DNA of 64,000 nt from Candidatus Obscuribacterales bacterium (GTDB lineage Bacteria > Cyanobacteriota > Vampirovibrionia > Obscuribacterales > Obscuribacteraceae). The stretch lies in contig JAIEQI010000001.1 in the NCBI GenBank assembly GCA_019747875.1, positions 62,001 to 126,000 of the forward strand, read 5' to 3'. A model generated the notes under the pieces. It ran no database searches. It was not told the origin of the DNA and was given only the letters and a program-made list of their open reading frames with translations. A program made the translations under genes and the position numbers. Shown here piece by piece: positions 3,761 through 55,452 of the stretch (the stretch's first letter is position 1; each line of letters opens with the position of its first letter).

Positions 3761-5278
3761 TTACGAAGGAACTCTGAACTTCTGCAGGTTGCCATTAACA
3801 ATATCTTTGACCAAAGCGTTTAGATCAAGATGATCTTCAATATGACTTGGAACTGGAGACGCAGAGCGCGCGGCGACGGCATCGGGATCTTTTACCGCCC
3901 AGGCATGCTTATTGTTAGTTGTCTTAATCTGTGCCACCAATGGAGTGCCGTCAGCAAGCGCAATGTGTTGAATACTAGTGCCTGTCGGCGCATAATCGAA
4001 ACTACGACTGATCATTGGTTGTCCCTGATAAGGACTGAGTGCGTAAGCAACCTGATTTTCAGGTTTAGATTGCAATACGGCTTTGTGTCCGAGTGAGGCC
4101 AAATGCTTTGCTTTGCCACCAGCTCCACCTTGCTGGAGAAGCGTGGGGTCGCCATGGTCTCTGACAAATAGCCTGAACTGGCCTGCAACAGCAGCCGGCT
4201 CCATACCTGTCACCGTGCTTGCTACCGAAACTACACCTTGAATGCGCGACGGTCCCAATTTTGCAGCAACTTCATTTGAAATAATCGCTCCGCTAGAGTA
4301 TCCAGCTAGAACGGTCCGATCTGTTTTGAACAAACTGGTCAATGATTTTTCCAGATCCAGAAGATAAGCAGTGTCAATGTTGCCCGCTTTTGGAGCGAAC
4401 CATCCACCTTCTTTGATGAGCCCAGATTCATGCCGCCATGCAGAGAGGTTAACTCCTGGTATCACACGGAATCTCTGTGGATGCGTATAAGCAGCCACAA
4501 AGTCTAGTGACTTGTCTGCCCGCAAATTTATAAGTCCTGCATCTGGCAGTTCGAGATTTTTCAATTTGCCGAAATCGAGCTTTAATCCGTCTTGCGCAAT
4601 CAGCAAACCAGAGCCGGCCCCTTTTGCGGAAACACCTTCACCGGCGAGCTTAGCATTCTTTGGTACAAAGAGATCAACCTGTCTTATGCCACCACCTTCG
4701 GGAGAATACATTTTGTACGGCACCACTTCACCGTCCATATGCCTTTGCCAGTTAGAAAGAATACTTTCCCGATTGAGTTCTGGAAGTTTATTGGTGCCTG
4801 GCGGTGTTTTCAGTCCGAAGTATGACCTTCCAGCTGCTTCTGCAAATCCGGACGCAACTGCCGAAATTGCAAAATCAGCTGTGAACCGACCTAGAGTTTC
4901 CTTCGAGATTTCAACATTTTGCTTCCAGTTACGATCGGAATTCCATGTATCTGACATGGCACCGCTCATATTGCTAACGCGTGCACTGATATCGTTTAGA
5001 GCCGGTACTGCAAGCGCTGGAGCCGCAATCCGTCCAACGGTCCATGACAATGATGGTGATCTCTTCAAGCAAGTAAGCGCTAACGTAACGCCAGCTGACA
5101 TAAGAGCTGTTTGAATTGTGTGAGCGCGATTCTCTTTATCAAACGAAGAAAGCACATAATCAGGTGCTGACGACACGCCCTTCCACAGGAGCTGCGCTTC
5201 GCGCACAAGGGCGTTGGAAGAGGGCTGACTTTGCACATCAGCAGTTAAGAGATCGGCGTCACGATTACGGTCCAACAC
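3761..5278 (-). CDS. putative secreted/envelope alpha/beta-hydrolase (PHB-depolymerase/esterase-like)
   Basis: 505 aa; 'TVLAGYSSGAIISNEVAAKLG' contains G-x-S-x-G nucleophile elbow; downstream 'RDHGDPTLLQQGG'. Confidence 0.65.
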   Translation of the reverse strand: MLDRNRDADLLTADVQSQPSSNALVREAQLLWKGVSSAPDYVLSSFDKENRAHTIQTALMSAGVTLALTCLKRSPSLSWTVGRIAAPALAVPALNDISARVSNMSGAMSDTWNSDRNWKQNVEISKETLGRFTADFAISAVASGFAEAAGRSYFGLKTPPGTNKLPELNRESILSNWQRHMDGEVVPYKMYSPEGGGIRQVDLFVPKNAKLAGEGVSAKGAGSGLLIAQDGLKLDFGKLKNLELPDAGLINLRADKSLDFVAAYTHPQRFRVIPGVNLSAWRHESGLIKEGGWFAPKAGNIDTAYLLDLEKSLTSLFKTDRTVLAGYSSGAIISNEVAAKLGPSRIQGVVSVASTVTGMEPAAVAGQFRLFVRDHGDPTLLQQGGAGGKAKHLASLGHKAVLQSKPENQVAYALSPYQGQPMISRSFDYAPTGTSIQHIALADGTPLVAQIKTTNNKHAWAVKDPDAVAARSASPVPSHIEDHLDLNALVKDIVNGNLQKFRVPS

Positions 5279-5696
5279 TGAGATATGCCTGCCTCACGCT
5301 CAATGACAAACGGGGATGAGCTCTTGCTCTGACCCAGCCACATTGGCAGAATACCTAGCCCCGCGGCCCACGCCTATGCGTAAATCACGCATGAGATCGC
5401 CTATTAGCAGATTCTCAAGAAATTATTAAAACCGTTCATTCCCCTGATGAATAGCCATTCTCGTGAAAACAGAGCTCGGAATTATTTGCGAATTCTCAGC
5501 TTCGAAGCGCCCAAACCGCCTGTCCCATGTCACATTTAGCCGAAAAATCTTTGAGCCTTTTGCAAGCGATTCGCACAACAAAATCAAAATTGGTTAATGT
5601 AAGTGCGAAGATATGATCGCGTTAATCTCAGACAACGATTGAGTTTCCACAAGAACGATCACCTGCATAACTGATCTTTCCACGAGCCTAAACTTC

Positions 5697-19075: not shown

Positions 19076-19963
19076 CTAGCATGCGCGCGCAAGGACATTA
19101 TCTAGCGGCTTAGCCAATGAAGCCTGTTTTTTACCGGCGACCTCTCTTATTTTGTCCAACTCGGCCAAAATTGAGGAGAATCTGGGAAACAGCTGATCGC
19201 GCTCCAGCAAAATCGCCTTAACTTCGGTCCGACTCACTACTTCAGAGAGCAGATCAAAAACAGGTTTTGAGATCCTTGCGCCATGCGTGTCAATAAGCAA
19301 GTTATCCACTCTGCGATGTCCAGCCACGTGTACTTGAACAACACGTTCAATCGGTAGAGAATCCAAATAGTCCATCGCATCAAAATTGTGATTGACGGAA
19401 TTGACGTAGAGATTGTTGACGTCAAGTAACAGCCCACAATCAGCTTGCTCAATGATTTCGCCCACAAACTGTGCTTCAGTCATCTCAGATCCCGGCATCA
19501 CCAAATAACTAGAAATATTCTCCAGAAGGAGGGGAATCTCAATATACTCTCGTACTTTCTTGATTCTCCTCACCACATGTTCAACAGCTTCCTTTGAGTG
19601 CGGTAGCGGTAGCAAATCATGAAGGCGATTCCCTTGCACACCGGTGAAGCAAAGATGATCGCTCCACCACGGAGCATCAATGCTTTGAAGAAACTTGTTC
19701 AGCTTCTTCAAGTAATCGACATCTACTTCACCGGTGTTTCCGATCGACAATTCAATTCCGTGCGGAATGATTTGGAAATCTCGTGCCTTCTCCAAATCTT
19801 TCATTTCGACAGGTCCAAAGTTGAGGTAATGATCAGAAATTACTTCTAGAAAGTCTATCGAATCTTTATTTTCGATGGTGTGATCAGCAATCTCTTCGCG
19901 ATATCCAAGTCCGACGCCAACTACCGGCATTTTCTTCTTTAATTCATGGAATTGGTTCGTCAT
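19076..19963 (-). CDS. DUF692 family protein (TIM-barrel, MbnB/TglH-related superfamily)
   Basis: 'VGVGLGYREEIADHTIENKDSIDFLEVISDHYLNFG', 'DHLCFTG', 'PLLLENISSYL', 'CGLLLDVNNLYVNSVNH', 'VVQVHVAGH', 'DTHGARI' are DUF692 landmarks. Confidence 0.93.
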   Translation of the reverse strand: MTNQFHELKKKMPVVGVGLGYREEIADHTIENKDSIDFLEVISDHYLNFGPVEMKDLEKARDFQIIPHGIELSIGNTGEVDVDYLKKLNKFLQSIDAPWWSDHLCFTGVQGNRLHDLLPLPHSKEAVEHVVRRIKKVREYIEIPLLLENISSYLVMPGSEMTEAQFVGEIIEQADCGLLLDVNNLYVNSVNHNFDAMDYLDSLPIERVVQVHVAGHRRVDNLLIDTHGARISKPVFDLLSEVVSRTEVKAILLERDQLFPRFSSILAELDKIREVAGKKQASLAKPLDNVLARAC

Positions 19964-20031
19964 TGCTCATTCCTCTGGGTGACTGATTTCCAGTAAGAAT
20001 AATGAGTTTATGTAAGGGAGTTGTGAGGAAC

Positions 20032-54968: not shown

Positions 54969-55093
54969 TCTTCCACCATTGGAAAGATTCTATTCTACCT
55001 AAAATCTTGCCCAAGTCACTCACGGTTTCATCACATTGCGCTGGTACCATCCGACTTGTAAAAACAAAAGAAACAAACACAAAGGAGAACATC

Positions 55094-55288
55094 ATGATTA
55101 GAAGAGAACAAGTGCGAAAAGGTTTACCGAAACTTCGCAAGCTAAGGAACACACAAGGGTTAAATGGCAACGGTGGAAATCTGATACCACCATCGGCTCT
55201 GGGACAACCCCCTTCTGCACAGGGGATCCCACCATCCGCTCTAGGACACCCGCCGTCGGCCCTCGGAATACCACCATCGGCACTTTAA
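55094..55288 (+). CDS. 64-aa basic peptide with five PPSALGx heptads
   Basis: MIRREQVRKGLPKLRKLRNTQGLNGNGGNLI-PPSALGQ-PPSAQGI-PPSALGH-PPSALGI-PPSAL*; strong SD AAAGGAG at 55081-55087, 6-nt spacer. Confidence 0.7.
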   Translation: MIRREQVRKGLPKLRKLRNTQGLNGNGGNLIPPSALGQPPSAQGIPPSALGHPPSALGIPPSAL

Positions 55289-55325
55289 ACTAGATGATGA
55301 TGAAGACGCAGTGAGTCCCGAGAGC

Positions 55326-55452
55326 GGTATAGCGATCGGGGCTCAGCAGTTTAAACCAAGCGCGCTTCGCATGGTATAGCGATCGGGACTTATCGTATAG
55401 AACCAAGCGCGCTTCGCGCGGTATGGGCGGACGGGACGTCCGCGCTCCATAC
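55326..55452. repeat. 47-bp tandem units (GGTATAGCGATCGGG...ACCAAGCGCGCTTCGC) followed by the 31-nt GGCGGACGGGACGTCCGC palindrome
   Basis: GGTATRG starts at 55326, 55373 and 55420 (47-bp period); 55422-55452 matches 16368-16398 inverted. Confidence 0.85.

What the first reader, a model, noticed from the sequence alone, without database searches (positions are those of the whole stretch)
55094..55288. Heptad-repeat peptide gene: basic leader plus PPSALGx x5
Strong SD (AAAGGAG) and a 64-aa product with an Arg/Lys-rich N-terminus, then IPPSALGQ PPSAQGI PPSALGH PPSALGI PPSAL, ending exactly on a repeat. The 21-bp DNA units differ mostly at synonymous positions (tcg/tct/tcc, gct/gca/gcc), suggesting selection on the peptide rather than recent DNA slippage. 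It could be a RiPP-like or processed repetitive peptide, an adhesin fragment or an intrinsically disordered linker. No modifying enzyme is adjacent apart from an M49-like peptidase downstream on the opposite strand.
Basis: partly seen in the sequence, partly recalled or inferred. Interest (0 to 1): 0.6.

Follow-up and report, generated by a model that had tools for sequence, protein, structure and literature searches.

The report
Secreted repeat-peptide precursor, RiPP-like regulon
The small repeat gene is one of about 45 scattered, jointly controlled genes in this uncultured relative of cyanobacteria that make short peptides with a shared "export tag" and very different ends, probably cut and secreted by one transporter and in many cases chemically modified, which is an unusually large and little-studied peptide arsenal.

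Summary
The ORF is real (55094-55288, 64 aa). Its first 28 residues (MIRREQVRKGLPKLRKLRNTQGLNGNGG) are not a generic basic leader. They match a conserved export leader (RKxLPKxKxLKNTQ...GG) found in about 45 small genes scattered through this genome and at least 16 in a same-genus genome. Each leader is followed by a different core. In this copy the core is five PPSALGx heptads, under strong synonymous bias (pS 0.71, pN 0.045). 35 of 42 cores in this genome contain Cys (7.8% Cys against 1.0% background), and orthologous cores are conserved. The leader tracks a C39-peptidase ABC exporter (PCAT) with a PPIase partner; in a third species a leader gene lies directly upstream of that operon. The family shares a promoter box, CTCACA-N5-CTCACA plus a -10. 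The window copy has it (55019-55037), as do an MNIO/DUF692 RiPP enzyme in this same window (19076-19963, -) and, more weakly, the genome's only LanB. I conclude that this is a double-glycine peptide precursor, cut after GG and exported, belonging to a prochlorosin-like dispersed system in Obscuribacterales. Whether this Cys-free core is modified is unknown. It is a new variant of a known kind.

The parts
55019..55037 (+). Promoter box CTCACGGTTTCATCACATT, a direct repeat with 11-bp period shared by the precursor family; 75 bp upstream of the ATG
   Evidence: Leave-one-out PWM score 17.9, second best site of the 64-kb window on both strands; box first seen as enriched k-mers upstream of 39 family genes
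55045..55050 (+). Putative -10 (TACCAT), 7 bp after the box, the same spacing as in most family members
   Evidence: a weak match to TATTCT (3 of 6) at the conserved offset
55081..55087 (+). Shine-Dalgarno AAAGGAG
   Evidence: Sequence; 36 of 39 family genes have an SD-like sequence
55094..55288 (+). Precursor peptide gene, 64 aa
55094..55177 (+). Double-glycine leader MIRREQVRKGLPKLRKLRNTQGLNGNGG (28 aa)
   Evidence: Single-sequence search finds paralogues; leave-one-out HMM E 1.8e-7, and an HMM built only from two other genomes of the genus E 3.2e-6, top hit of the window each time
55178..55285 (+). Core NLI + five PPSALGx heptads (36 aa), the predicted mature peptide after GG cleavage
   Evidence: the cleavage itself is inferred
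19076..19963 (-). MNIO (DUF692, PF05114) RiPP maturase under the same promoter box; regulon member in this window and candidate tailoring enzyme
   Evidence: PF05114 E 1.3e-94; HvfB/BufB-type subfamily models are the closest but below their cut-offs; aligns over its length with 3bww
20009..20027 (-). Promoter box CTCACAACTCCCTTACATA in front of the MNIO, best site of the window, with TATTCT 7 bp downstream
   Evidence: box also upstream of the G003 orthologue (16.9)

Best explanation
The gene encodes the precursor of a small secreted peptide. A PhoB/OmpR-like box with its -10 drives about 45 dispersed precursor genes together. Each precursor carries the same leader, which is most likely recognised by the cNMP-binding/C39/ABC exporter (PCAT) and its PPIase partner, cut after Gly-Gly and exported. 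In many paralogues the Cys/Ser/Thr-rich cores are probably modified first, by the single LanB/LanC pair and/or the co-regulated MNIO. The window copy is a Cys-free, multi-repeat member. Its released 36-aa peptide NLI(PPSALGx)5 most likely works outside the cell, as an extended surface or matrix peptide or as a set of repeated heptapeptide cores, with at most its five serines dehydrated by LanB. Shown: leader family, conservation, promoter box, co-occurrence with the PCAT. Inferred: cleavage, export, modification, function.
For: Leader paralogues, confirmed by leave-one-out and cross-genome HMMs. Shared box with -10; a strict genome-wide pattern gives 14 hits in G000 against 2 for the reversed control, 11 of the 14 at precursor genes. 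Full-length PCAT orthologues in G000, G003 (88%) and G002 (62%), the three genomes with leaders, and not in G001, which has none. In G002 a leader gene lies directly upstream of the PPIase-PCAT genes on the same strand, with a second leader gene beside them. The C39 domain is intact and its presumed Cys/His/Asp residues are invariant across the three orthologues. Cores are 7.8% Cys against 1.0% background, with purifying selection between orthologues. One LanB and one LanC in G000, LanB with a weaker box. MNIO under the same box in G000 and G003. Heptads under synonymous bias.
Against: No transcript, peptidomic or enzymatic data. The PPSALG core has no orthologue in the other genomes examined. 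The PCAT operon itself lacks a clear box in G000 and G003. LanB and LanC are on different contig ends and are not next to any precursor. G003 has Cys-rich cores but no LanB or LanC detected; it is 70% complete, and a gene flanking LanC is missing from it too. G025 has a PCAT-like protein (47%, query residues 264-1016) but no leader hits. With no Cys, this particular core cannot form lanthionine.
Confidence: 0.78

Rival explanations
1. Unmodified matrix or signal peptides. The family works like EbfG1-4 of Synechococcus elongatus: GG-leader small proteins cut by a C39 exporter and used unmodified, for example as amyloid or biofilm matrix. LanBC and MNIO serve other substrates.
For: EbfG1/2 mature peptides begin right after GG and are Pro/Ser/Tyr-rich (TTYNPPSYPYPSYPK, SGYSIPTYPK; PMC4997328), and EbfG1-3 form amyloid (PMC9981879). 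Cys-free, repeat-rich cores such as PPSALGx, GSY repeats and ILGAIGG repeats look alike in style. G002 has leaders and the PCAT but no LanBC, and its cores lack Cys.
Against: Most G000 cores are Cys-rich with conserved Cys patterns, and the regulon includes an MNIO and probably LanB, which points to modification for most members.
Confidence: 0.4
2. Multi-core RiPP: each PPSALGx heptad is a separate core, modified at Ser (Dha) or elsewhere and released by further proteolysis, giving five near-identical small products.
For: Five units under purifying selection with third-position divergence; another family member carries three repeated GPPLCN-type units (L008 minus strand).
Against: No dedicated internal protease or cleavage motif found; the last unit is incomplete (PPSAL) and one unit has Q for L.
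Confidence: 0.2
3. Low-complexity drift: a tandem duplication inside a precursor paralogue, the core having no specific function.
For: No PPSALG orthologue found in relatives (and loci); tandem repeats arise easily.
Against: pS 0.71 against pN 0.045 across units; intact SD, leader and promoter box.
Confidence: 0.07

Closest known systems
Prochlorosins / synechococsins (ProcA/SyncA with ProcM/SyncM)
   Same: Dozens of precursor genes scattered over the genome with a conserved leader ending in GG and hypervariable Cys/Ser/Thr cores, few modifying enzymes (29 and 79 precursors, PMC10783134)
   Different: A different leader (RKxLPKxKxLKNTQ, not annotated by any Pfam/NCBIfam model); the candidate enzymes are class I LanB + LanC and an MNIO rather than class II LanM; a shared promoter box was found here
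EbfG1-4 / PteB biofilm peptides of Synechococcus elongatus
   Same: GG-motif small proteins exported and cut by a C39 transporter; Pro/Ser-rich mature ends (PMC4997328)
   Different: Four genes in one operon there, about 45 dispersed genes here; there no lanthipeptide or MNIO enzymes are part of the described system
Bacteroidetes class I lanthipeptides (leader LxLxKx5L, often ending in GG, with a C39 protease nearby)
   Same: LanB/LanC plus C39/GG processing and a short hydrophobic/basic leader motif (PMC7268733)
   Different: Those are compact gene clusters; the leader spacing differs (here LxxLK); the link between LanBC and the leader is only circumstantial here
MNIO (DUF692) RiPPs: bufferins, methanobactin, TglH, ChrH
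   Same: A PF05114 enzyme shares the promoter box
   Different: No partner protein or adjacent precursor; HvfB/BufB subfamily models are matched below their cut-offs

Membership tests
Double-glycine leader peptides exported by C39 (PCAT) transporters | Conserved leader ending in GG/GA before a variable core | tested here: met
Double-glycine leader peptides exported by C39 (PCAT) transporters | Cognate C39-ABC exporter with an intact peptidase in the same genome, genetically linked to leader genes | tested here: met
   Present in G000/G003/G002; C39, ABC and cNMP domains; adjacent in G002, not adjacent in G000
Double-glycine leader peptides exported by C39 (PCAT) transporters | Cleavage after GG and secretion | not testable with these tools
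   Needs protease assay or peptidomics
Class I lanthipeptide precursor (LanA) | LanB and LanC encoded in the genome | tested here: met
   LanC Zn-site motifs GLAHG, CYG and CHG align with a solved LanC-like protein
Class I lanthipeptide precursor (LanA) | Core with Ser/Thr and Cys able to form (methyl)lanthionine | tested here: not met
   Window core has five Ser and no Cys; 35 of 42 family cores do have Cys plus Ser/Thr. The window peptide itself is therefore not filed as a lanthipeptide
Class I lanthipeptide precursor (LanA) | Precursor adjacent to or shown to be bound by LanB/LanC | tested here: inconclusive
   Not adjacent; shared promoter box only (LanB site 12.9)
Prochlorosin (ProcA) | Nif11-type leader and ProcM-type LanM | tested here: not met
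   Leader matches no Pfam/NCBIfam model; the genome's only LanC-like domain over the cut-off is a stand-alone 453-aa protein, not a LanM
EbfG biofilm peptides | GG leader, Pro/Ser/Tyr-rich mature part, C39 exporter | tested here: inconclusive
   Features shared; homology to EbfG not tested and no biofilm evidence
MNIO-modified RiPP (bufferin type) | DUF2282/Cys-pattern precursor with adjacent MNIO and partner | tested here: not met
   MNIO at 19076-19963 has no adjacent precursor or recognised partner

The most novel reading that the evidence does not exclude
A dispersed, combinatorial RiPP system outside the class II prochlorosins: one LanB/LanC pair and one MNIO act on about 45 scattered precursors with a new leader, switched on together by one response-regulator box, in non-photosynthetic relatives of cyanobacteria. 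It includes multi-repeat cores such as (PPSALGx)5 that become dehydrated or oxidised repeat peptides rather than lantibiotics.
Probability: 0.35. Interest if true: 0.8.

Novelty: new variant of a known kind. Interest (0 to 1): 0.62.

Why it matters
Prochlorosins are the well-known case of one enzyme set serving dozens of genome-scattered precursors, and they are class II. A 2020 survey found only LanM lanthipeptide enzymes in Cyanobacteria (PMC7268733). A parallel system with class I enzymes, an MNIO, a new leader and a visible shared promoter box in Obscuribacterales would show that this logic evolved more than once. The box gives a handle on when and why such peptide arsenals are made, which is open for prochlorosins. 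It also offers a possibly substrate-tolerant enzyme set and about 60 natural cores to test.

Tried and rejected
(1) Adhesin fragment or linker: rejected, because the ORF is complete with its own SD, box and conserved leader. (2) Adjacent biosynthetic cluster: none seen; the neighbours (amidase-like protein, lipoprotein-like 145 aa, M49-like peptidase; only the last was tested with Pfam) show no RiPP function. (3) LanM: the only LanC-like domain over the cut-off is stand-alone. (4) LanB and LanC as one operon broken by an assembly gap: plausible, as both end within 62 bp of contig edges, but the edges share no overlap, so it stays inferred. (5) LanBC as sole modifier for the whole family: weakened by G003 and G002 lacking LanB/LanC. 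Absence in G003 is uninformative, since a gene flanking LanC is missing there too; G002's few leader peptides lack Cys. (6) Named relatives through LanB in genome contigs: none. The PCAT alignment found two Candidatus Obscuribacterales MAGs (JAKFVQ010000023.1, 87%; JAIEPM010000406.1, 62%). (7) Viral contigs and plasmids: no relative. (8) Terminator: only hairpins on the minus strand in the downstream repeats.

Full report
Observation. The ORF, SD and repeats are as described. The core has 21 of 29 period-7 identities; shuffles never exceeded 13.

What it is. A search of the window's own genome (8.46 Mb, 228 contigs) with the 64-aa product returned 16 places. Besides the gene itself, those whose ORFs were read showed the N-terminal part followed by a different tail. 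An alignment gives the leader RKxLPKxKxLKNTQ...GG with K, L, P and G almost invariant. With that profile the genome holds 43 copies at E <= 0.001 and about 45 in all, singly or in small tandem arrays on many contigs. Circularity was checked: an HMM without the window copy finds it as the top hit of the window (E 1.8e-7), and an HMM built only from the other genomes of the genus does too (E 3.2e-6).

Cores. In 42 cores of this genome Cys is 7.8% (background 1.0%), 35 contain Cys and all of those contain Ser/Thr; 25 have Cys within the last three residues. Eight pairs between G000 and G003 were compared, about seven of which look orthologous in the core as well. Summed over the pairs the cores have pS about 0.64 and pN about 0.24; one core, GIGPASYYCSNQTVCDH, is identical in protein with pS 0.62. 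The cores are therefore real selected peptides. The window core is one of the few without Cys. Other unusual members also carry repeats: GSY x4, three GPPLCN-like units, ILGAIGG-like units, and GGNGG-rich tails.

Machinery. A 1018-aa protein with cNMP-binding, C39 peptidase, ABC membrane and ABC ATPase domains, preceded by a PPIC-type PPIase, lies on C214. Full-length orthologues exist in G003 (88%) and G002 (62%), the other genomes with leaders, while G001, same genus, has neither. In G002 a leader gene lies directly upstream of the PPIase and PCAT genes, with an HlyD-like protein and a second leader gene beside them. This makes the leader an export leader. G000 also has one LanB (1089 aa, N and C domains) and one stand-alone LanC (453 aa), each at a contig end. 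Their link to the family is circumstantial: Cys/Ser/Thr-rich cores, no other LanB or LanC in the genome, and a weak promoter box at LanB.

Regulon. The k-mers CTCACA, CCTCAC and CTCACAA stand out upstream of 39 family genes (CCTCACAA in 10, shuffle maximum 5). A 19-bp matrix, CTCACAAATTCCTCACAAA, is a direct repeat with 11-bp period followed at 7 bp by TATTCT-like -10 elements, an arrangement like Pho boxes (comparison from general knowledge). 43 of 62 family upstream regions score at least 10, against 1-2% of shuffled or random segments; the matrix was trained on these sites, so this fraction is optimistic, but the k-mer result and the window leave-one-out are not affected. Members without a box are often the later genes of tandem arrays. 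A strict pattern has 14 matches in the genome (reversed control 2), 11 of them at precursors. The window copy scores 17.9 leave-one-out. The best site in the window, at 20009 (-), is in front of a DUF692/MNIO protein (PF05114, E 1.3e-94), a family of RiPP-modifying enzymes; the orthologue in G003 keeps the box, the one in G002 does not. MNIO homologues as such are widespread in the class (46 of 60 genomes), so it is the box, not the presence of an MNIO, that links it to the peptides; a 57% homologue in G030, where no leaders were found, also has a box-like site (21.4). LanB has a weaker box 80 bp upstream of its ATG (12.9). Sites in G001 precede sensor-like genes (the assignment is by eye), so the box is older than the peptide family.

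How it probably works. The box responds to an unknown signal; precursors and MNIO (and probably LanB) are made; some cores are modified; the PCAT binds the leader, cuts after GG and exports the core. For the window gene the product is NLI(PPSALGx)5. With no Cys it cannot carry lanthionine; five serines could at most become dehydroalanine. An extended Pro-rich repeat fits a surface or matrix role like EbfG (PMC4997328, PMC9981879) at least as well as an antimicrobial one. Steps shown: leader family, selection, promoter box, co-occurrence. Steps inferred: cleavage, export, modification, role.

Known systems. In logic it is closest to prochlorosins, in processing to EbfG/PteB and to Bacteroidetes class I lanthipeptides with GG leaders. 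It fails the defining tests of the prochlorosins, and the window peptide itself fails the Cys test of a lanthipeptide. Leader and core match no Pfam or NCBIfam model, and a literature search for Obscuribacter with lanthipeptide found nothing, so this appears undescribed within the libraries searched.

Taxonomy. The PCAT alignment hits two MAGs named Candidatus Obscuribacterales bacterium.

Noticed in passing
window 19076-19963 (-), box at 20009-20027: MNIO/DUF692 RiPP maturase with the strongest copy of the precursor promoter box in the window; monocistronic, no adjacent precursor. Now considered part of the system.
   Followed up: partly
L180 (G000:C227:58111) and L172 (G003:C7:36670): A conserved 69-70-aa protein (MKKHKEQIQNVVWGRQQNQFNSHRVEIISK...) without the leader sits behind the same box in both genomes: possibly a second peptide type or an accessory of the regulon.
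   Followed up: no
L160, L163 (G001:C8:49924, C13:485940): In a genome of the genus without any leader peptides the box precedes PAS-like and sensor-like genes, suggesting the box belongs to an older signalling regulon.
   Followed up: no
L128 and L129 (G015:C2, G025:C1): In two other family members a LanB (in G025 LanB+LanC) is encoded next to a giant protein; in G025 that protein has RHS repeats and a transglutaminase-like domain (PF05593, PF01841). Odd pairing of a lanthipeptide dehydratase with an RHS-type protein.
   Followed up: partly
window 55325-55424: Tandem 47-bp repeats with GCGATCGGG and AAGCGCGCTT palindromes just downstream of the gene; their spread in the genome was not counted.
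   Followed up: partly
G000:C84, L153/L162: Leader genes followed by GGNGG-rich glycine repeat tails instead of Cys cores; a similar one lies beside the PCAT operon in G002 (L125 8824-9174).
   Followed up: no
G000:C80: A leader gene (257-334) and an additional MNIO homologue (4502-5281, 36% to the window MNIO) lie about 4 kb apart.
   Followed up: no
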